In this document: in pieces, positions 3,192-54,363 of the stretch
Layout: every line of letters begins with the position of its first letter
Position numbering within the stretch: the stretch's first letter is position 1
From: Candidatus Goldiibacteriota bacterium HGW-Goldbacteria-1
GTDB lineage: Bacteria; Oederibacteriota; PGYV01
Length of the DNA: 64,000 nucleotides
NCBI GenBank assembly: GCA_002839855.1
Contig: PGYV01000001.1
Location: 62,001 to 126,000, forward strand
Direction of reading: 5' to 3'
Program-made: the position numbers and the translations under genes
Notes under the pieces: model-generated
What the model was told of the DNA's origin: nothing
The model's database searches: none
Seen by the model: the letters and a program-made list of their open reading frames with translations, nothing else

Positions 3192-4739
3192 TCAGGCTTT
3201 TTTTAATTTAAACACTCCCTTTATCAGTTCCATATCATTATCATCAAATACCTTAAACAGTTTTATACATACGGCAGAATAAATAACACTAAACAATCCC
3301 GCCTTCGCAAAAAACAGCAGCCAACCGGTCCTGTTGCCCATTAAGTATTCCATGATTGATATTACGCCCAAAGATATAACGGCAGCCGCGCCGGGTTTTA
3401 AAATAGACAGCACTATGCCGCCCGCTTTTCCGGATATTACCCTGTAAAGGATATACAACGCCAGCCCCCCTATTGAAAGCGATATAGCCGCAGAAATAAG
3501 AGTCCCCTTTAAACCAAAATATTTTGTTAAAACTATACTTAACACTATGTTTAATAAAGCCGATAATCCGGAAACCCACATTACTTCTTTTACCCGTTCC
3601 ATCCCGTTTAAAATATTCATTGCAGGGTAGCCTATCAGGCTTGCGGTATACGCAAACGCAAGCACAGCCATCACTAAAAACGCTTCTTCATACCCGGTGC
3701 CAATCCAAAGGACTATAAATTCATTCCCAAAAGCAATTATGCCGGCGCATAAAAGTATACCGGCAAAAAATAAATACCGCGTTACGCGGATAAACATCAT
3801 ATGTATCTTATCGCTCATGTCTTTTGTTTTCAGTTCCGCTGACGCAGGCAAAATGGAATACAGCCCCATAATTTCAGGCAGCTGCCAGATAAATTTAGAA
3901 ACAGATGCCCCTACCTGATAATATGCCGCGTAAATAGGATTTAAAAAATAGCCCAAAATAAGTTTATCAGCATTCTGTCCGGTTAATACCGAAACCTTAG
4001 ATATTACAAGTTTTAAGCTTATGGACATCAACTCCCTGAACTTTTTTATACTTATGTAATCTACTCCGAATGCAAGCGGCGGATATATTTTTTTAACATA
4101 AAAAAGCAGTACTATAGTTTCTAAGAGCAGCGAAGACATCTGCGCCACCGCCACGCCCTTAATACCATAACCCATAATAAGCGCCGCCGCCATAGCCGCT
4201 GTCCTTATGTAAGCGATTATAATATGCACTATATTGGTAATATAAACCACGTTAAAAGCGTTAATCAGGTAAACAAAGGCAAGCAGGACAAAATTCAGCA
4301 TGAACGCGTAAACGGTAAACGCCACAACAAAAGAAGCATCCCCGGAATTTTCAGACGCCACTTTAAAGAAACTGTTCATAATGGGATTTTTAAGAAGAAA
4401 AAATGCCGCCGACATTAAAATAGCGCTAAACATATAAAAAAAGAACATTGTATTTGCTGTTTCGTTTATATCCTTTTGTCCTGTTTTCGGGTCATATTTT
4501 GGAACCATTATTGACATTCCCGAAGGCGTCTGCAGCCCGCCCGCAAGCTCCATAAATACCACCATTGCGGTAACAAGAGCCCAAACCCCGTACATTTCCT
4601 TGCCCGCATATTTTAAAATCATAGGCGTTATTATAAACATTAAAGGGAACGTTAAGATAAAAAATACAATACTTGTGACTGTATTTTTTTTCATTCTTTC
4701 TTTTAAAGGTTCTTCTGTGTACCGCCATTCATTTTTCAA
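3192..4739 (-). CDS. Polysaccharide/lipid-linked oligosaccharide flippase (Wzx/MATE-like)
   Basis: A 515-aa integral membrane protein with about 12-14 hydrophobic helices in the MOP-exporter arrangement. Family hallmarks include a basic N-terminus before the first helix, a conserved region around AYYQVGASVSKFIWQLPEIMG (residues ~275-295), and NILNGMERVKEV in the second half. Relatives move undecaprenyl-linked oligosaccharides or other polyprenyl-linked precursors across the inner membrane. It is last in an operon behind cinA, with a 4-nt overlap. The glycan-related operon immediately upstream fits an envelope polysaccharide role, but the substrate is unknown. Confidence 0.75.
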   Translation of the reverse strand: MKNEWRYTEEPLKERMKKNTVTSIVFFILTFPLMFIITPMILKYAGKEMYGVWALVTAMVVFMELAGGLQTPSGMSIMVPKYDPKTGQKDINETANTMFFFYMFSAILMSAAFFLLKNPIMNSFFKVASENSGDASFVVAFTVYAFMLNFVLLAFVYLINAFNVVYITNIVHIIIAYIRTAAMAAALIMGYGIKGVAVAQMSSLLLETIVLLFYVKKIYPPLAFGVDYISIKKFRELMSISLKLVISKVSVLTGQNADKLILGYFLNPIYAAYYQVGASVSKFIWQLPEIMGLYSILPASAELKTKDMSDKIHMMFIRVTRYLFFAGILLCAGIIAFGNEFIVLWIGTGYEEAFLVMAVLAFAYTASLIGYPAMNILNGMERVKEVMWVSGLSALLNIVLSIVLTKYFGLKGTLISAAISLSIGGLALYILYRVISGKAGGIVLSILKPGAAAVISLGVISIMEYLMGNRTGWLLFFAKAGLFSVIYSAVCIKLFKVFDDNDMELIKGVFKLKKA

Positions 4740-5992
4740 ATTGGTGCCCCGCCCCGGTTTATTGTTTTTAACATTTCAAACAATGCCATTACAGCAGCCC
4801 TTTGCCTTACGATTTCACGGCTTCCTGAAAAAACAAACCTGTTTACAATAATCGCGCCCTTATAATTAATCCCGATATACACAAGCCCCACAGGTTTTTC
4901 CGGCGTGCCGCCGCCCGGTCCTGCTATCCCTGTAACCGATATGGCGCAGTCTGTTTTGAAAAGCTCCGCGCACTTTAAAGCCATTTCGCACGCGCATTCC
5001 TGCGACACAGCGCCATAATCCTGTATTATATAAGGGTCTACTCCAAGTATATCTGTTTTAACTTCATTTGAATAAGAATTTATCCCGCCTATATAATATG
5101 AAGAAGCCCCTGCTGTTTGGGTAAGTTTTGACGCTATAATTCCCGAAGTGCAGGATTCCGCGGTTGATATGGTAATTTTTTTATTTTTAAGCGCATTTAC
5201 CAGCACGCCACAAAGTGTTTCTTCATTTTCACCGTACAGATTTTCGCCCAGCCTTTTTTTAATTTCCAGTTTTACCTTATCCAGCATTTTATCAGCTTCG
5301 GATATATTTGCCGCTTTAGCGGTTATCCTTAATTCTATTTCTGTATGGTGAGCAAGTATTCCTATGGAAGGATTTACATACGACTCAAACATATCTTTTA
5401 TAAGGTCATTTACGGCGGATTCCGCCATTCCTGCTATTTTAAGCGAAACATATTTTATAACAGACGCCTGTTCCCCGCTTTTTTTTATCAGATAAGGTAT
5501 TATTGCATCTGTCACCATCGGTTTCATTTCATACGGCACGCCGGGCATGCAGGCAATTGTTTTACCTTCATGTTCCAGTATGAAGCCCGGTGCGGTGCCC
5601 CTGTCATTTTTAATAATTTCCGAGTTTTCAGGAATGCCCGCCTGTAACTTGTTGGAATCTGCCATCTTGATACCGCGTTTTTTAAAGAATTCATTCAGGT
5701 TTAAAAGTATGTCTTCATGAATAACTATTTTTCTTCCCGTGCACTGCGACACAGCGTCACGGGTAATGTCGTCCACAGTGGGGCCAAGCCCGCCGGTTAT
5801 AATGACTGCATCGGCGCGCTGCAAAGCGGCTTTAATGGCCAAAACAAGACGGCCGGCGTTGTCGCCGGCCGTTGTCCTGAAGTATACGTTTATCCCCGCT
5901 TCGGCAAATTTTCTGCTGATGTAAGAGGAATTTGTGTCCTCTATCTGCCCCAGCAGAAGTTCTGTTCCGCAGGTGATTATTTCCGCGTTCAC
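4736..5992 (-). CDS. cinA: CinA family protein (MoCF domain plus nicotinamide-nucleotide amidase)
   Basis: A full-length 418-aa CinA. The N-terminal molybdopterin-binding-like domain carries TGGLGPTVDDITRD at residues 67-80. The C-terminal PncC-type amidase domain (about 258-410) carries the nucleophile region STAESCTSG and the loop TGIAGPGGGTPEKPVG. Two-domain CinA proteins are associated with NAD recycling: hydrolysis of ADP-ribose and deamidation of nicotinamide mononucleotide. The start overlaps the stop of the stomatin-like gene by 4 nt and its stop overlaps the flippase start by 4 nt, so all three are coupled. Confidence 0.9.
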   Translation of the reverse strand: MNAEIITCGTELLLGQIEDTNSSYISRKFAEAGINVYFRTTAGDNAGRLVLAIKAALQRADAVIITGGLGPTVDDITRDAVSQCTGRKIVIHEDILLNLNEFFKKRGIKMADSNKLQAGIPENSEIIKNDRGTAPGFILEHEGKTIACMPGVPYEMKPMVTDAIIPYLIKKSGEQASVIKYVSLKIAGMAESAVNDLIKDMFESYVNPSIGILAHHTEIELRITAKAANISEADKMLDKVKLEIKKRLGENLYGENEETLCGVLVNALKNKKITISTAESCTSGIIASKLTQTAGASSYYIGGINSYSNEVKTDILGVDPYIIQDYGAVSQECACEMALKCAELFKTDCAISVTGIAGPGGGTPEKPVGLVYIGINYKGAIIVNRFVFSGSREIVRQRAAVMALFEMLKTINRGGAPI

Positions 5993-18321: not shown

Positions 18322-18792
18322 TTGTCTCCCCTTTGAAATTCAGTTAAAATATTGCGGGTTAAAGACCCGCGTCTGCCAACATTAAAAACTGGACGCAACA
18401 TGTTGCGTCTCTACTTTAAAAAACAAAATACAAATATTAAACCACTTTTGCGGTTACGCTTCTGCCTAACTGCTTTATGCTTAATTGCTTATTTTAAATC
18501 CAACTGCCGCACCCTAAAGGGCGCGCCTACCAAAGCTTAGATAACTGCCGCGGGTTAAAAATCCGCGTCTTCCAACATTAAATCAAGACGCAATATATTG
18601 CGTCTCTACTTTAAAAAACAAAATACAACTATTAAACCGCTTTTGCGGTTACGCTTCTGCTTAACTGCCTTATGCTTAATTGCTTATTTTAAATCCAACT
18701 GCCGCACCCTAAAGGGTGCGCCTACCAGATCTAAACCAACCATCCAAGCATCTAACCTTCCAAGCATCCAACCATCCAAGCATCTGACTTCC
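18322..18792. repeat. Spacer filled by a ~195-bp tandem duplication of palindromic repeats
   Basis: Copy 1 runs about 18354-18548 and copy 2 about 18550-18731, roughly 90% identical. Each contains three short stem-loops: GCGGGTTAAAGACCCGCG, GACGCAACATGTTGCGTC, and GCACCCTAAAGGGTGCGCC then CTACC. Between them is a GCTTATGCTTAATTGCTTATTT stretch. A run of CCAAGCATC/AACCATC octamer-like words (18735-18786) follows. No coding potential is seen. The spacer separates pfp from the giant glycosyltransferase. Confidence 0.85.
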
Positions 18793-34947: not shown

Positions 34948-34996
34948 TTTTTGTGAGTTTCAAAATAATGAAACACATAGAATGGTATTTAATAGT

Positions 34997-35172
34997 AGAG
35001 GCGTAATACATTACACCTGACAGATTTAAAAACAAGAACGAGGCTTATCATGATACGCCTCTACATTACAAAAATAATACATTAAATACGATCTGGGATT
35101 TTAATGTAGAGGCGCAATATATTGCGCCTCATGGATTGTAAGACAAGAACGAGGCGCATCATGATACGCCTC
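34997..35172. repeat. Four 22-bp GAGGCG...CGCCTC palindromes
   Basis: Copies begin at 34997 (degenerate), 35040, 35109 and 35151. The 35109 copy is perfect (GAGGCGCAATA plus its complement). Cores vary (TATCATGATA, CAATATATTG, CATCATGATA) while the outer GAGGCG/CGCCTC and flanking CTACATTACAAAA are kept. They lie downstream of glnK copy 2 and upstream of the sigma54 operon. Confidence 0.85.
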
Positions 35173-35200
35173 TACATTACAAAAACAATAAATAAAATAA

Positions 35201-37109: not shown

Positions 37110-37201
37110 GACATTAAGATAGTTTTGGAAAGTGAGTTATGGATGAATAGATTCCAATTATAAACGCACAGAGCGTGCACGCAGAATTTTTTCAGTTAAT
37201 T

Positions 37202-37325
37202 TATTTATGGCTTATACCCTTTTGCTTATTGTCCTATTTATGGCTTATACCCTTTTGCTTATTGTCCTATTTATGGCTTATACCCTTTTGCTTATTATCC
37301 TATTTATGGCTTATACTCTTTGGGC
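37202..37325. repeat. 33-bp minisatellite, about 3.7 copies
   Basis: Units start at 37202, 37235, 37268 and 37301 (TATTTATGGCTTATACCCTT then TTGCTTATTGTCC). The array ends just beyond the 3' end of the activator gene (stop at 37341). The unit is a multiple of 3, so it keeps an open hydrophobic plus-strand frame, but no ribosome-binding site precedes it. Confidence 0.9.
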
Positions 37326-37340
37326 TAACCTCTTATTTTC

Positions 37341-44783: not shown

Positions 44784-44855
44784 GCAGCTTGGCAGCTTGG
44801 CAGCTTGGCAGCTTGGCAGCTTGGCAGCTTGGCAGCTCGGCAGCTCGGCAGCTCG
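44784..44855. repeat. Octamer tandem repeat GCAGCTTG, 9 copies
   Basis: Six consecutive GCAGCTTG units are followed by three GCAGCTCG units, without interruption. It lies between the LacI-like gene stop and the enolase promoter region. The 8-bp unit cannot keep a reading frame, so it is not coding. Confidence 0.95.
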
Positions 44856-47920: not shown

Positions 47921-50900
47921 TTATTTAAGCAGTATAATTCTGCCCGCCTTAAATCTTTGAATTTCCCCTTCGCTTTCCGCTGTTAATACATAGTAATACG
48001 CCCCGTTGCCAAGCCCGTTAAATTTTTTTGCCGGAACACTTACTGTATTTATCCCCGCCTGCCTGTCCGCGGTGTATTCAAATTCCTTTATAAGCCTGAA
48101 AGAGACCGTATATAAAAGAATACGCGTTTTATTATGGCTGCTGCGGGCGCTGTATACCGCATTTATTTGGGTGTGTTTCCCGGCAATAAAAGGGTTGGGA
48201 TAGATATATACATCATTATCAGGCACAGAGACCGCCGCTATTACAGCGGTAGGCGTTTGGGTAAAAGAAGCGGTGTTTGTATAAGTGGCGGTAAATGTCA
48301 TTGTATAAGTACCTGTCTGCGAATGCGTCGGTGTAAACGTATTCTGAACTGTGTTTGTATTTGTGTGCGTGGATGTGAAAGTATTCTGAACGGTGTTTGT
48401 ATTTGTGTGGGTATAAGTTGACGTGAATGTATTCTGAACTGTGTTTGTATTTGTGTGCGTGTAGGTCGGTGTAAATGTATTCTGGACGGTGTTTGTATTT
48501 GTGTGCGTGTACGTTGACGTGAACGTATTCTGGACGGTGTTTGTATTCGTGTACGTATGCGTGGATGTAAATGTATTCTCAATTGTATTTGTGTGCGTGT
48601 ACGTGGGGGTATCGGTTGATGTGAAGGTCTGTGTATAAGTGTAAGTATGCGTATCAGTTTCAGTTGCAGTCGGGGTGAAAGTTACAACAGCGGTATTAAC
48701 CCACACAGGGCAGAGTTCATTAAAAGAAGATCCGCCCACTAATGCCGCATTTGACCCGTCTGAATCCGCAATAAAAATATCGTAATCACCGCCGGAATTA
48801 TTTATATAAATAATTTTCTGCCCGTTGTCAAAGTATGCAGGGTCATTGTCATCCCCTGCTGACTGCACAAGAGCCAGCCTTGATGCGCCTGAATAATCCA
48901 TGGTGTAAATGCCGTCATCCGTATCAGACGGCTCTTTTGAAATAAAAAGTATTTCATCCGCAAGCGGGCTGCACGAAGGATACCAGTCCGGTACCGTGTT
49001 ATTTGTAAGGCGTGTTATACCCTGCCCGTCCGATGCCATCATGTAGATTTCATCGGTATCAGACGCGGCGCCAAGCCTTGAAACAAATACAATCTTAGTG
49101 CCGTCACGGGTAAAGCAGGGGTCCCATTCTTCGGTTGTGTTCATTAAAGGGGTAAGGTTTAACTGCCCCGTGCCGTCAGATGACATTACAAAAATATCGC
49201 CGTAACCGTCATCCCGGTTTGATTTAAAAACAATTTTAGAGCCGTCCAAAGAATATGAAGGGTCATAATCACTCGCGGTATTATCCGTAAGTTTTATCAC
49301 CTGCAGCGTTGTAAGGTTAATTTCATAAATGTCATTATCGCCGTCAGCGTCGCCGTAAAATACCGCTTTTAAACCGTCCGCGGAAACAGAGGGGTTTAAT
49401 TCATTTGCCGGGCTGTTTGTAAGGTTTGTTTCAATCCCTGTTTCAAGGTCGCGCGAATATATTTCCCAGTTGCCGTCCCTGTCTGTGGAAAATAATATTT
49501 CACCTGTTAATGATATGTTCTGCGTTGAAGTGGGCGTTGCGGTATGTGTGGCCGTATTTGTATAAGTGTACGTGTAGGTTTGCGTATGGGTCGCGGTATT
49601 AGTGGCAGAATCTGTTGAAGTATAAGTTGCTGTTGTTGTTGCCGTTTCTGTTGCTGTCTCTGTGCCTGTCTCCGTATGCGTAAAAGTGGGCGTTGATACC
49701 GTGTTTCCCAGGAAATAAAAATCATCAAACCACGCTGTTTTGCCCGCGGTAAGCGTGCCTGTCCTTATTCCTATACCGTTAAATACCCCCGTATATGAAA
49801 AATCTGCCATCGACACACTGAAATGGTTCCACTGATTTGCCGTCCACGTACCGCCGTCGGCATAAGCGGCTGTTACAACCACCGAACTTCCCGTGTTCAC
49901 AGTATCAATCTGCAGCTGCAGCCGGAAATTATAATTGGTATCTGTAAGATAAACCCAGCCGTCAAAAGTATTTAAATCGGCGGTATTCATATCAGGGCCG
50001 CCAAAATTTGCCACAATTCCCCAGTCGCCTGAAGATGTTGTCAGCCTGAAAGACTCCGCGCCGTTAATTGTCCTGTTCTGCCCGGCGTCATTTGGATTAT
50101 TTCCCGGGGTAAGCGTGCACGCAGGGGTGGAAGCGGCGCTGCCAAGCCCCATTCCAAAAGCCGGTATTTCACTGTCAAAAACAAGTATTCCCGGTGTAAG
50201 TATGGGTGTGTTTGTCGGCACAGGTATTAATAAAGCGGGTTCAGAACACACATTTTCCCAATCAGCAATAATACCCACCCTGTTTTTTAACTGTTCTTCA
50301 AAAAGCGAATCAGGTGTAAGCCCTGCGGCGTATCCCACACCTTCATATAAAACGTTCTGCCTCCATGACGCGGGCCCAACCTGCATCCCCGCGTTATTGT
50401 TAATTACAGTCCCAACAACATATGTACCTGCCGGGTACCCCGCGCCGTCATGCACCAGATAATTCTGTGACACGCCCACCTGTATCGCGTAGCCGCTGTT
50501 TGAAGGGCTTATATTCAATTCGCCGCCGTGCCACTGCCCACCGTAACCGTCTGTTTCAAGATTCCAGTTTGCACCCGTTCCATAAGACTCATAAGCGTTG
50601 CCGCTTGTCGTCCACCTGTTATAACCGTTATACGCGTTGCCGTTGCCCTGATAAAACTTGTCCCTTAACAGCGCATGCGAAAATCCAAAGTGAGTGTCTT
50701 CTGACTGCGCGGCATCAAGCGACACGCACTGTGTCATTACCACGTAATGGGAAAGCGCCCTGCTTAAAATAAAATTATGCCTTGCCTGCTCGCCGTGGCA
50801 CCGTTTGATAAGAATGTTCTGCGAACAGTTTACATAAAAACCATACCCCGCGCCGCCGCCGCCGTAATCCTGAGTTTTTTTAACGTAGCAGTCTTCTATT

Positions 50901-51964
50901 GTGATGCGCGCGGAATATTCCACCAGAATACCGTAGCGCGGAAAATTTATTACAGAAACGTCTTTAACCCATCCGTTCACCACGCCTTCAAAATAAACAG
51001 CACAACCCGAAGGCATGCCTTCCCTTGTGTTATCGGCAGTGCCGTTGTTATTATCTTCAAACTGAATTGTCATTCCGGATATGCCGGCATTTTCAAGCAT
51101 ACCCCTGTCAGTGCCGCTTGTTTTTATGTATATTGTATTGTTTGCGGGGTTAAGCGTGTATGGTATGGGCGCGTCTAAGGTTATCCCTGACGCGTCTTTT
51201 GATAAGACCTTTCTTAGATACGTGAATGAATATTCCCTGTTGCCCGGGTCGCCCGACGGCCACACACCGCCGGAATTTGCAGCGGTAAACGCCGCCCAGA
51301 AATACTGCTGCACCACAATCCACGAACCCGCATTTATAGACGCAAGGTTTGTAAGCCCTGTTATATATGTATCGCCTTCGTTGATTGTATTTGTAACGTT
51401 GGATAAAACCGTGCCTCCTTCCACCCACGCTTTATTCCACGCGAAATTTCCCTTTTCAAAAGTAAAAACGCCTTCAAAAGCATTTGAATCGTCATTATAA
51501 ATATGCGTTGCAGGGACGTTTATAAAAGTATAGCCGCTGCCGGCGCCTTCAATAGATACATTGGGATAATTAATGGCAATCGGTTTTCCCGATGAAGTCT
51601 GCGTTATTGTATAATTGCCCGCCGGTATTTTTACTATTCCGCCGCCTGCTGAACCTGCGGTATTTATCTTGTCCTGAAGTTCCTGGGTAATATCGCCTGT
51701 CCCCGCCACAGTAAGGACATTGCACGGGATATTGTGTTGCAGGGGTGTTTCAGAGAGATTATAGCCGGTGTAGGAATAATCAAGCAGTTTCCAGTCACGG
51801 GAGTTATACGTTGCTGTAACTTCGGTATATTTTCCCAGTGCACCGCTGTACGGGAATAACTGCGATTCCCAGCAGTATGAATTCAAAGGCAATATAATAA
51901 GGAAGATAACCGCGCTAATTACCTCATTAAAACTGAACCTTCCTAATACATTTGGCATCCGCAT
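47921..51964 (-). CDS. Modular secreted protein: beta-helix, carbohydrate-binding-like, propeller, Thr-rich, sorting tail
   Basis: A 1347-aa protein with a signal peptide (to about LNSYC). Residues ~60-570 form a pectate-lyase-like right-handed beta-helix (ITQELQDKINTAGSAGGGIVKIPAGNYTI). Residues ~590-755 resemble a carbohydrate-binding beta-sandwich (AESFRLTTSSGDWGIVANFGG). A Thr-rich linker (~758-815) leads to a TolB-like six-blade propeller (~818-1088). A 16-aa Thr/Asn repeat (~1091-1241) and a C-terminal YPNPF domain (~1245-1347) like T9SS/FlgD-type sorting tails follow. Its promoter at 51971-51999 predicts a leaderless mRNA starting at this ATG. No ribosome-binding site is present. Confidence 0.8.
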   Translation of the reverse strand: MRMPNVLGRFSFNEVISAVIFLIILPLNSYCWESQLFPYSGALGKYTEVTATYNSRDWKLLDYSYTGYNLSETPLQHNIPCNVLTVAGTGDITQELQDKINTAGSAGGGIVKIPAGNYTITQTSSGKPIAINYPNVSIEGAGSGYTFINVPATHIYNDDSNAFEGVFTFEKGNFAWNKAWVEGGTVLSNVTNTINEGDTYITGLTNLASINAGSWIVVQQYFWAAFTAANSGGVWPSGDPGNREYSFTYLRKVLSKDASGITLDAPIPYTLNPANNTIYIKTSGTDRGMLENAGISGMTIQFEDNNNGTADNTREGMPSGCAVYFEGVVNGWVKDVSVINFPRYGILVEYSARITIEDCYVKKTQDYGGGGAGYGFYVNCSQNILIKRCHGEQARHNFILSRALSHYVVMTQCVSLDAAQSEDTHFGFSHALLRDKFYQGNGNAYNGYNRWTTSGNAYESYGTGANWNLETDGYGGQWHGGELNISPSNSGYAIQVGVSQNYLVHDGAGYPAGTYVVGTVINNNAGMQVGPASWRQNVLYEGVGYAAGLTPDSLFEEQLKNRVGIIADWENVCSEPALLIPVPTNTPILTPGILVFDSEIPAFGMGLGSAASTPACTLTPGNNPNDAGQNRTINGAESFRLTTSSGDWGIVANFGGPDMNTADLNTFDGWVYLTDTNYNFRLQLQIDTVNTGSSVVVTAAYADGGTWTANQWNHFSVSMADFSYTGVFNGIGIRTGTLTAGKTAWFDDFYFLGNTVSTPTFTHTETGTETATETATTTATYTSTDSATNTATHTQTYTYTYTNTATHTATPTSTQNISLTGEILFSTDRDGNWEIYSRDLETGIETNLTNSPANELNPSVSADGLKAVFYGDADGDNDIYEINLTTLQVIKLTDNTASDYDPSYSLDGSKIVFKSNRDDGYGDIFVMSSDGTGQLNLTPLMNTTEEWDPCFTRDGTKIVFVSRLGAASDTDEIYMMASDGQGITRLTNNTVPDWYPSCSPLADEILFISKEPSDTDDGIYTMDYSGASRLALVQSAGDDNDPAYFDNGQKIIYINNSGGDYDIFIADSDGSNAALVGGSSFNELCPVWVNTAVVTFTPTATETDTHTYTYTQTFTSTDTPTYTHTNTIENTFTSTHTYTNTNTVQNTFTSTYTHTNTNTVQNTFTPTYTHTNTNTVQNTFTSTYTHTNTNTVQNTFTSTHTNTNTVQNTFTPTHSQTGTYTMTFTATYTNTASFTQTPTAVIAAVSVPDNDVYIYPNPFIAGKHTQINAVYSARSSHNKTRILLYTVSFRLIKEFEYTADRQAGINTVSVPAKKFNGLGNGAYYYVLTAESEGEIQRFKAGRIILLK
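48310..48600. repeat. 48-bp coding minisatellite (Thr/Asn repeat)
   Basis: The word ATTCTG recurs at 48341, 48383, 48431, 48479, 48527 and 48575: intervals 42, 48, 48, 48, 48. Each unit encodes THTNTNTVQNTFTSTY or a close variant in the minus-strand protein; the 42-bp unit has lost two codons in frame. Confidence 0.9.
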
Positions 51965-52037: not shown

Positions 52038-52066
52038 TTGATTTTAAATATATTTCTTGTTATATT
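52038..52066 (+). promoter_or_regulatory. Sigma70 promoter of the MopE-like lipoprotein
   Basis: TTGATT (52038-52043), a 17-nt spacer and TATATT (52061-52066), 45 nt before the ATG at 52111. It is divergent from the leaderless promoter at 51971-51999. Confidence 0.7.
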
Positions 52067-52110
52067 TACCTGTTTGCATAAAACATATGTTTAAAAAAAG
52101 GGGAACCAAA

Positions 52111-54363
52111 ATGAAAAAACTTTTATCCACATTTATTATTTTTATTGCCCTGCTGTTTTCGGCTTTTTCCTGTAAAAACGCCATAAATCCCGCGGCGCCA
52201 ATGGCTACAAACACTCCCAACGCGCAAAATACCGCAGAAGCATTTGTTACGCAGATAAACAATATCTACGCGACACAGACAGCCGCGGCAGCCGTAAATA
52301 CCGCCCTTGCTATTGTCACCGCGATAGGAGAAGCGCATGCCACGGAAACCGCGGTTGCGGCAAGGCATACCACAGAAGCTATAATGACGCAGCTGGCGTC
52401 CGGTTCTGCCACGCCAACATCAACACCCACACGCACAGCGACAAACGGCGTTACACCGGATAATACCGTAAACATTAACCTCAGCCAGACTTCCACTCCG
52501 GCTGTGGAGCCTAATTTTACCCTTAATATTCAGCTTCCACAGGCAGCTCCCGGAAAACCGATATATATAACAATGGCACCCGCCGCTCATTTAGCCGATC
52601 CCGATTACGCAATCTTATACAATACAACATGCCCAAACGAATCTGATTTTTCAGTCTCGCTGGAATTGGCTGAAGAAGGCACTTACTACTGTTACGTGCT
52701 TGTGGACAACGACCTGTCAGGCCTGTCCGAAGATATTTTCAGCCAGTCAACTTACGGTGATTACTTTACAACAAGCATGGTATCCTTTTACGCTTTATTT
52801 GGAGGTTCACATTCTATAACCCTTGGCACGAACTTAATAACACCCACACCCACCATAGATATTAACGCGGATAATGACGGCGACGGTGTCCCATACAATC
52901 AGGACTGCAATGATAATAATCCCGATGTTTATCCCGGCGCACAGGAAGTATGCGACGGCGAAGATAATGACTGCGATGATTTAGTTGACGAAGGATGCGA
53001 CCAGGACGGCGACGGTTATAATGCGGATGAAGACTGCAATGATAATGACCAGAATACGAATCCCGGAGTTCAGGAAGTGTGCGACGGCATTGACAACAAC
53101 TGCGACGGAGAAGTTGACGAAGGCTGCCCAACTGATAATGACGGAGACGGAATTCCCGAAGGCGACGACTGTGACGATTATGACCCTTCTGTACGCGCGG
53201 CAATAACCTATTATGCCGACAGCGACGGTGATGGCTATGGAAATTATGATATCTCAACTCAATCGTGTGTCCCGGTTCCAGGATATGTTACAGATTATAA
53301 CGACTGCGACGATACTGATTCCTACCTTAACCCTGATACAGTATGGTACTACGACCAGGACGGCGACGGTTTCGGGAATGATGAAATATCAAGTTATACC
53401 TGTGAACCGTCTTTAGGGTATGTCGCTTCAGGCGGCGACTGCGATGACAATAACCCAGATTTTTACCCCGGGGCAATATGGTACCGCGACCTTGATGCAG
53501 ACGGCTACGGTGATAATGAAACTTCTATAGAAAACTGCATGCCTCCGCCCGGATATATTAAAGACAATACCGACTGCGATGACACTAACCCTTCAATAAA
53601 CCCTAATACCCTGTGGTATCCTGACGCAGACGCTGACGGTTACGGCGACCAATATAACGAATACGCTTCATGCACACAGCCCGGCGGATACGTAAGCGAT
53701 AACACCGACTGCGATGACAATGACCCCGCCTTCCATCCTGATGCCATTTGGTATCAGGATTCTGACAGCGACGGCGCCGGAAATCCTGACATTTCAATTG
53801 TAAGCTGCACTGCTCCCCCCGGTTATGTATCAAATAACAACGACTGTGATGACACAAACGTTGAAATAAGCCCTGATACAATATGGTACAGAGACAATGA
53901 CGGGGACGGCTACGGCACACCGGATTCATACATTACAGCGTGCATTCCACCTTCCGGTTATGTCCGTAACAGCACAGACTGCAATGACAGTGACAGATAT
54001 ATAAACCCTGAAACTTTATGGTGCGCGGATACTGACGGTGACGGCTGGGGCAACCCTTCTGTGTGCGAAAATTACTGTACGCAGCCATTTGAAGGATACG
54101 TAAGAAATAACCTTGACTGCAATGACAACAATCCCGATGTATCCTATCCAAACTGGATCCAGGACTTTGACGGGGATGGATATGGCAACGCAGGCATACG
54201 TTCAACAGCATGCATTCAGCCGGAAGGTTTTATCCCCTTGCCAAGCCCCATGATTTTAGACTGTGATGATGAAAACGAATTCGTATATCCCGGCGCTCCG
54301 GAAATTTGCGGAAATGACATTGACGATAACTGCGATGGAGCATTTGACGAAGGGTGCGAATGA
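52111..54363 (+). CDS. MopE-like lipoprotein with tandem metal-binding motifs
   Basis: A 750-aa protein. The start at 52111 is chosen because AAAGGGGAA lies upstream; the earlier in-frame ATG lacks a site. A lipoprotein signal ends at Cys21 (SAFSC). An Ala/Thr-rich helical stretch (NTAEAFVTQINNIYATQTA) and a Thr linker follow, then a beta domain. From about residue 250 to the end come acidic cysteine repeats of the 'putative metal-binding motif' type (DCNDNNPDVYPGAQEVCDG then EDNDCDDLVDEGC). The first two repeats and the last are that form. About eight in the middle are a variant, WYxDxDGDGYGN...DCDDxxP. It probably binds calcium or other divalent cations outside the cell. Confidence 0.85.
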   Translation: MKKLLSTFIIFIALLFSAFSCKNAINPAAPMATNTPNAQNTAEAFVTQINNIYATQTAAAAVNTALAIVTAIGEAHATETAVAARHTTEAIMTQLASGSATPTSTPTRTATNGVTPDNTVNINLSQTSTPAVEPNFTLNIQLPQAAPGKPIYITMAPAAHLADPDYAILYNTTCPNESDFSVSLELAEEGTYYCYVLVDNDLSGLSEDIFSQSTYGDYFTTSMVSFYALFGGSHSITLGTNLITPTPTIDINADNDGDGVPYNQDCNDNNPDVYPGAQEVCDGEDNDCDDLVDEGCDQDGDGYNADEDCNDNDQNTNPGVQEVCDGIDNNCDGEVDEGCPTDNDGDGIPEGDDCDDYDPSVRAAITYYADSDGDGYGNYDISTQSCVPVPGYVTDYNDCDDTDSYLNPDTVWYYDQDGDGFGNDEISSYTCEPSLGYVASGGDCDDNNPDFYPGAIWYRDLDADGYGDNETSIENCMPPPGYIKDNTDCDDTNPSINPNTLWYPDADADGYGDQYNEYASCTQPGGYVSDNTDCDDNDPAFHPDAIWYQDSDSDGAGNPDISIVSCTAPPGYVSNNNDCDDTNVEISPDTIWYRDNDGDGYGTPDSYITACIPPSGYVRNSTDCNDSDRYINPETLWCADTDGDGWGNPSVCENYCTQPFEGYVRNNLDCNDNNPDVSYPNWIQDFDGDGYGNAGIRSTACIQPEGFIPLPSPMILDCDDENEFVYPGAPEICGNDIDDNCDGAFDEGCE

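What the first reader, a model, noticed from the sequence alone, without database searches (positions are those of the whole stretch)
47921..51964. Five-module secreted protein with hypervariable Thr/Asn array and YPNPF tail
Beta-helix, carbohydrate-binding-like domain, propeller and a C-terminal YPNPF domain like type IX secretion signals are joined by Thr-rich linkers. One linker is a 48-bp minisatellite with near-identical DNA copies. If the tail is a real T9SS signal, it extends that system or a similar one to this lineage.
Basis: partly seen in the sequence, partly recalled or inferred. Interest (0 to 1): 0.5.

Follow-up and report, generated by a model that had tools for sequence, protein, structure and literature searches.

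The report
Type IX secretion cargo, unnamed phylum
This large bacterial surface protein ends in a tag like those used by the type IX secretion system, and its genome and relatives carry the matching outer-membrane gate and shuttle proteins but no recognisable engine, which points to a variant of a system usually credited to Bacteroidota and its kin.

Summary
The ORF is real but lies on the minus strand (47921-51964, 1347 aa): signal-peptide-like start, weakly supported beta-helix, an unidentified domain, a Thr-rich linker, a TolB-like propeller, a second Thr/Asn linker with the 48-bp array, and a YPNPF tail. The tail is a divergent type A T9SS sorting domain. A profile of 12 such tails finds 69 in this genome, all ending within 17 aa of a stop, and tails in 45 of 45 genomes of the phylum. 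The genome has a SprA/Sov homologue over its curated cut-off (SprA matches in 40 of 45 phylum genomes) and 29 PorV-family genes, 12 of which start within 600 bp downstream of a tail gene (0.2 expected). Profiles of these proteins pick SprA, PorV and PorU among solved structures. GldL, GldM, GldN and PorU were not found, though no positive control was available. So the translocon-shuttle-cargo half of T9SS is present, with fn3 domains on SprA and PorV-family shuttles paired with cargo genes; the motor is unknown. The array units are about 80-85% identical, not near-identical, but the array differs between relatives. New variant of a known kind; lineage unnamed by the tools.

The parts
47921..51964 (-). 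Whole ORF, 1347 aa (P0001)
51872..51964 (-). Signal-peptide-like N-terminus, residues 1-31
   Evidence: read by eye; not tested with a predictor
50726..51088 (-). Beta-helix region, residues 293-413
   Evidence: Pfam PF13229 24.5 bits, gathering score 25.9
49700..50197 (-).
   Evidence: no family hit at E<=1; bounds by eye
49520..49696 (-). Thr-rich linker 1, residues 757-815
   Evidence: composition
48695..49501 (-). TolB-like PD40 propeller, residues about 822-1090
   Evidence: PF07676, 4 stretches, E 4e-23
48248..48688 (-). Thr/Asn linker 2, residues 1093-1239
48314..48579 (-). 48-bp tandem array, 5.7 copies, 80% matches
47924..48223 (-). C-terminal sorting domain (YPNPF tail), ends at the stop codon
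   Evidence: A1 profile 97.1 bits, itself a row of A1; TIGR04183 19.4 bits, cut-off 23; model pLDDT 92.9

Best explanation
The ORF encodes a multi-domain surface or released protein, exported to the periplasm by Sec and across the outer membrane by a T9SS-type translocon. Its last 100 residues fold as an Ig-like sorting domain that loads into a SprA-family channel and is drawn out sideways by a PorV-family shuttle. Thr/Asn linkers act as flexible, repeat-driven spacers outside the cell. SHOWN by sequence: the tail, its relatives in the genome, SprA, PorV-family genes and the tail-PorV tandems. INFERRED: export, the order of steps (taken from Flavobacterium johnsoniae), the role of the linkers, and the dependence of this protein on SprA. 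UNKNOWN: what powers release, since no GldLM-type motor was recognised, and which PorV serves this protein, whose gene has no PorV neighbour.
For: Tail alone: TIGR04183 is its only NCBIfam match at E<=10. 69 tails in the genome, all within 17 aa of a stop. Tail profile finds the PorU C-terminus (8e-8) and the sorting domain in entry 8glj (1e-6) in the PDB; the tail model aligns with PorU at Z 10.0, tied with others. SprA homologue 205.9 bits, cut-off 200; matches in 40 of 45 phylum genomes; family profile finds F. johnsoniae SprA at 8e-55. 29 PorV-family genes, 17 over cut-off; a profile of 10 of them finds PorV at 8e-38 and TodX at 7e-5. 12 of 29 PorV-family genes directly follow a tail, rotation mean 0.2, maximum 3. 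Mechanism of reference: passages of PMC10994853.
Against: This tail is under the TIGR04183 cut-off and gives no Pfam Por_Secre_tail match. Unrelated Ig folds score like PorU. GldM and GldN not found in 45 genomes, GldL only twice below cut-off, PorU not in the own genome. Congener G040, 99% complete, has 32 tails and no SprA match. The gene has no PorV neighbour.
Confidence: 0.78

Rival explanations
1. The tail is a generic FlgD-like Ig domain, a structural end-cap on surface proteins with no sorting role; SprA and PorV-family proteins serve other cargo or none of these.
For: Many of the weaker of the 69 tails read like FlgD Ig domains (WDGKN..G....G.Y, by eye). FlgD appears in the profile search at E 0.06 and in Foldseek. 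FlgD_ig is matched weakly in some tail proteins.
Against: PorU and the 8glj sorting domain score far ahead of FlgD. Every tail is C-terminal. PorV-family genes follow tail genes far beyond chance. This tail alone matches TIGR04183 and not FlgD_ig.
Confidence: 0.12
2. The SprA and PorV homologues do another job, such as lipid or LPS handling, and the tails travel by another route.
For: PorV-family proteins also match FadL-type barrels weakly. LptF/LptG homologues (named by eye) lie in 18 of 35 SprA neighbourhoods. Some genomes with SprA have few tails (7-12).
Against: The PorV-family profile is much closer to PorV than to TodX. Tandems with tail genes. All 45 genomes have tails.
Confidence: 0.08
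3. A complete T9SS is present and the motor, ring and sortase have only diverged beyond the Bacteroidota models (compatible with the best explanation; differs on the motor).
For: SprA itself exceeds its cut-off in only 3 of 45 genomes, so other parts could fall below detection. No positive-control genome rang for GldM, GldN or PorU.
Against: No motor-like gene recurs beside SprA in 35 neighbourhoods. No match in 45 genomes to GldM or GldN.
Confidence: 0.5

Closest known systems
Type IX secretion system of Flavobacterium johnsoniae and Porphyromonas gingivalis (SprA/Sov, PorV, type A CTD cargo, GldLM/PorLM motor)
   Same: SprA homologue, PorV-family shuttles, C-terminal Ig-like sorting domains on many modular exported proteins
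   Different: SprA carries N-terminal fn3 domains; GldL, GldM, GldN and PorU not recognised; 29 PorV-family genes instead of a general PorV; a separate small phylum
Type B cargo and dedicated SprF/PorP-like shuttles of F. johnsoniae (PMC12618676, passages)
   Same: Cargo and shuttle genes side by side, one shuttle per cargo; some shuttles may be tied to peptidoglycan through an OmpA-type partner
   Different: Shuttles here are of the PorV family and tails are type A-like; in two PorV proteins the OmpA domain is fused to the barrel
Reduced T9SS gene sets in Bacteroidetes 'Incertae sedis' (PMC7323717, passages)
   Same: Sov and PorV homologues listed without PorK, L, M, N
   Different: Those keep PorU, PorX, PorY and PorZ homologues and belong to Bacteroidetes
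TolB beta-propeller family (TIGR02800)
   Same: PD40 repeats of residues about 822-1090
   Different: 152.9 bits against a cut-off of 343; one module of a longer protein

Membership tests
Type IX secretion system (genome) | SprA/Sov outer-membrane translocon | tested here: met
   205.9 bits against the curated cut-off of 200; profile finds F. johnsoniae SprA at 8e-55; 40 of 45 phylum genomes match at E<=0.001, 3 of 45 over cut-off in that search
Type IX secretion system (genome) | PorV-type shuttle | tested here: met
   29 PorV-family genes, 17 over the family cut-off; none reaches the stricter PorV equivalog cut-off among the 10 scanned; profile finds PorV at 8e-38
Type IX secretion system (genome) | several exported proteins with a C-terminal sorting domain | tested here: met
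   PF18962: 17 places, 10 over cut-off; A1: 69
Type IX secretion system (genome) | GldL/GldM inner-membrane motor | tested here: inconclusive
   GldM 0 of 45 genomes, GldM_1st 0 in own genome, GldL 2 of 45 below cut-off and 0 in own; no control genome with a known motor could be reached
Type IX secretion system (genome) | GldK/GldN periplasmic ring | tested here: inconclusive
   GldN 0 of 45, nothing rang in controls; GldK not searched
Type IX secretion system (genome) | PorU sortase (C25 peptidase) | tested here: inconclusive
   PF01364 0 in own genome, nothing rang in controls
Type IX secretion system (genome) | SprE/PorW, SkpA, PorX/PorY | not tested
   a 624-aa TPR protein near SprA matches only general TPR models
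Type IX secretion system (genome) | export of tail-bearing proteins depends on SprA | not testable with these tools
   needs an experiment
T9SS type A sorting domain (TIGR04183 / PF18962), this protein | score over the curated cut-off | tested here: not met
   TIGR04183 19.4 of 23 bits; no PF18962 match at E<=10. Filed as a divergent relative, not as a member of the model
T9SS type A sorting domain (TIGR04183 / PF18962), this protein | C-terminal position and Ig-like beta-sandwich | tested here: met
   ends at the stop codon; beta-sandwich model, pLDDT 92.9; PorU Z 10.0, mirolase CTD 9.0, PorZ 8.7, tied with other Ig folds
FlgD Ig-like domain (PF13860), this protein | match to PF13860 | tested here: not met
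   no match for this tail at E<=10
TolB (TIGR02800), this protein | score over the equivalog cut-off | tested here: not met
   152.9 of 343 bits

The most novel reading that the evidence does not exclude
A phylum-wide T9SS-type system that works without the GldLM rotary motor: an fn3-bearing SprA channel and many cargo-dedicated PorV-family shuttles, some fused to OmpA-type peptidoglycan anchors or TPR domains, extract cargo by another energy source or by a folding or anchoring ratchet. It could be an older, motor-less form of T9SS to which the Bacteroidota motor was added.
Probability: 0.25. Interest if true: 0.8.

Novelty: new variant of a known kind. Interest (0 to 1): 0.55.

Why it matters
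Papers read here in passages call T9SS specific to Bacteroidota or to some FCB phyla. A SprA matched in 40 of 45 genomes of another, small phylum, with 7 to 110 sorting tails per genome, widens the range of the system, unless that phylum is itself of the FCB group, which could not be settled. If the motor is truly missing or different, the lineage offers a natural test of which T9SS steps need energy. The tail-PorV gene pairs, with type A-like tails, would help to read the recognition code between sorting tail and shuttle.

Tried and rejected
Rejected: that the tail is a one-off (69 in the genome) and that the lineage lacks T9SS core genes altogether. The structure of residues 28-780 from two sequences failed (pLDDT 28.1), and neither the PDB profile search nor PHROGs gave anything for that part, so the beta-helix and the next domain stay as read from sequence and one sub-threshold Pfam match. 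phmmer with the single SprA protein found only titin-like and other fn3 chains; the family profile was needed. Foldseek on the tail model gave generic folds first, with PorU at rank 30; the second look put PorU at rank 2, tied with others. The idea that PorV-paired and orphan tails form two classes was tested with a loose motif: 1 of 11 paired against 22 of 56 orphan tails, p = 0.08, not significant (two of 69 left out because they end 17 aa before the stop). A very long open frame carrying a tail, which I first noted as a giant gene, was an artefact of masked sequence (corrected). Paper searches on T9SS and its spread; no paper on T9SS in this lineage was recognised, but the lineage is unnamed and most subscription papers are not held. 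All papers were seen as search listings or passages, none whole.
Full report
What is there. The finding's coordinates hold one open frame of 1347 aa on the minus strand. Pfam recognises a PD40 propeller (4 stretches, E 4e-23) and, just under its gathering score, a right-handed beta-helix at residues 293-413; NCBIfam sees a TolB-like propeller well under the TolB cut-off. The domain at about 590-755 has no family hit. Thr makes up 30-50% of two linkers. The second linker holds a 48-bp array of 5.7 copies; four in-register units share 38-41 of 48 bases, less than 'near-identical'. A homologue in a congener (locus L013) is 82% identical over residues 15-1089, but its second linker has other repeats and its tail is only 36% identical; a second congener's fragment (L175) is 89% identical in the propeller and 73% in the tail, again with a changed array. 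So the array does vary between close relatives, and the tail evolves faster than the body.

The tail is a T9SS-type sorting domain. Alone, this protein's tail scores 19.4 bits against TIGR04183 (cut-off 23) with no other NCBIfam family at E<=10, and Pfam gives no Por_Secre_tail. It is therefore a divergent case that family scans miss. Aligned with 10 other tails of the genome and the L013 tail (alignment A1), it makes a profile whose best solved-structure matches are the C-terminus of PorU (8e-8), the sorting domain in entry 8glj, a SprA-PorV structure (1e-6), a GH167 enzyme, a peptidase and PG93 (entry 5m11, titled PorZ); FlgD follows at 0.06. Several rows of A1 pass PF18962 on their own, so this test speaks for the set more than for the single tail. 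The AlphaFold model of this tail, from 22 sequences, is confident (pLDDT 92.9). In the second-look alignment PorU is second with Z 10.0 over 101 residues, mirolase CTD Z 9.0 and PorZ Z 8.7, but unrelated Ig folds lie at the same level, so the fold agrees without deciding.

The tail is shared. PF18962 finds 17 places in the genome, 10 over cut-off, not including this one. A1 finds 69 (E<=0.01; 11 are its own rows), all ending within 17 aa of a stop codon. Of 29 tails read with 70 residues before them, 20 follow a stretch with at least 30% Thr (a 30th, misread there because of a contig end, was read). In the phylum all 45 held genomes have tails, 7 to 110 each, median 37. Many of the weaker ones resemble FlgD Ig domains, so 69 is an upper estimate for true sorting tails; on the other hand a stretch of the own genome is masked, so the count is not complete either.

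The gate and shuttles are there. A 2079-aa protein scores 205.9 bits against the SprA/Sov model (cut-off 200). SprA matches at E<=0.001 occur in 40 of 45 phylum genomes, 24 of 25 of the high-quality ones, although only 3 of 45 exceed the curated cut-off in that search; the 5 genomes without a match compare with 4.35 expected from the completeness values alone. None of 14 control genomes rings. A profile of 22 of the 35 SprA proteins that I extracted finds F. johnsoniae SprA at 8e-55, residues 153-333, 427-1444 and 1474-1578. These SprA proteins carry N-terminal fibronectin type III domains. PorV family: 31 matches in 29 genes, 17 over cut-off; one control genome of 14 rings, below the cut-off. 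A profile of 10 of the 29 finds PorV at 8e-38, TodX only at 7e-5.

Gate, shuttle and cargo are linked. Twelve of 29 PorV-family genes begin within 600 bp downstream of a tail, on the same strand; random rotation of the map gives 0.2 on average and never more than 3 (000 rotations). With only PorV genes over cut-off the count is 7 of 17 against 0.13; with only the 58 tails outside A1, 8 against 0.19. This layout recalls the type B cargo and SprF shuttles of F. johnsoniae (passages of PMC12618676), but with PorV-family shuttles and type A-like tails. Of the 10 PorV-family proteins scanned, two end in an OmpA domain and two in TPR repeats. The gene of the finding itself has no PorV neighbour, like most tails here.

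What is missing. GldM: no match in 45 genomes, nor with the Pfam GldM_1st domain in the own genome. GldL: two matches below cut-off in 45 genomes, none in the own genome. GldN: none of 45. PorU peptidase: none in the own genome. No positive-control genome could be reached, so this is failure to detect, not proof of absence. In 35 SprA neighbourhoods (of 40 genomes with SprA; five not fetched) the recurring neighbours are an fn3-rich protein directly downstream, ending FlgD-like where complete (18 loci), LptF/LptG homologues (18 loci, named by eye) and a protein of about 220 aa with one apparent membrane helix (9 loci, helix read by eye); none looks like a motor. Published precedent: the Bacteroidetes 'Incertae sedis' are listed with Sov and PorV but without PorK, L, M, N (passages of PMC7323717).

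How it most likely works. In F. johnsoniae the sorting domain binds inside SprA to PorV loops and leaves sideways with PorV, and release, not loading, needs the motor (passages of PMC10994853). I infer the same order here: Sec export, loading of the tail into SprA, extraction by a PorV-family shuttle, then display or release of the beta-helix and propeller modules on Thr/Asn spacers. The energy source is open.

Against this reading. This tail is below the curated cut-off; the structural match is not exclusive; congener G040 (99% complete) has 32 tails but no SprA match, which may be an assembly gap or a real loss; and the body of the protein has no assigned activity.

Where it stands in the literature. 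PMC11285876 (passages) says T9SS may be present in several FCB phyla and that its genes are absent from other phyla; PMC4793230 (passages) found it in Bacteroidetes only. The phylum here is small: asked for up to 120 genomes, the tool held 45, so I take it not to be Bacteroidota (inference from size); its name and its relation to FCB remain unknown.

Noticed in passing
own genome C6:12680-61630 (loci L146-L148) and C1:136165-154322 (L149, L150): Clusters of 10 and 5 tail-bearing genes on one strand, most with Thr-rich linkers; they look like surface-protein islands.
   Followed up: no
L015:6123-9293 (+), directly downstream of SprA: A fibronectin-type-III-rich protein ending in a FlgD-like domain lies directly downstream of SprA in 18 of 35 SprA loci; perhaps a partner of the translocon.
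   Followed up: partly
L022:134-793 (+), directly upstream of SprA: A 219-aa protein with one apparent membrane helix and no family match lies upstream of SprA in 9 of 35 loci.
   Followed up: partly
L014:3343-5382 (+) and L027:4679-6622 (+): PorV-family barrels fused to a C-terminal OmpA peptidoglycan-binding domain, as if shuttle and anchor were one protein.
   Followed up: partly
L013:9769-10065 compared with window 47924-48223: The congener's homologue is 82% identical in the body but only 36% in the tail; its genome, as far as handle G040 is the same, is the one without a SprA match.
   Followed up: partly
window 52057-54363 (+): Neighbouring ORF of up to 768 aa with a lipoprotein-like start, a Thr linker and many repeats of the kind CDGxDNDCDGxVDEGC (read).
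   Followed up: no
window 18354-18727, 34988-35199, 37201-37338, 44784-44853: Tandem repeats with units of 195, 111, 33 and 8 bp, apparently mostly between genes.
   Followed up: no
L028 about 42-575 and 4585-5391 (-): Runs of a short DNA repeat read as LQLTGYNLQLTSYN or QVTSYKLQ in open frames; probably a repeat and not a gene.
   Followed up: no
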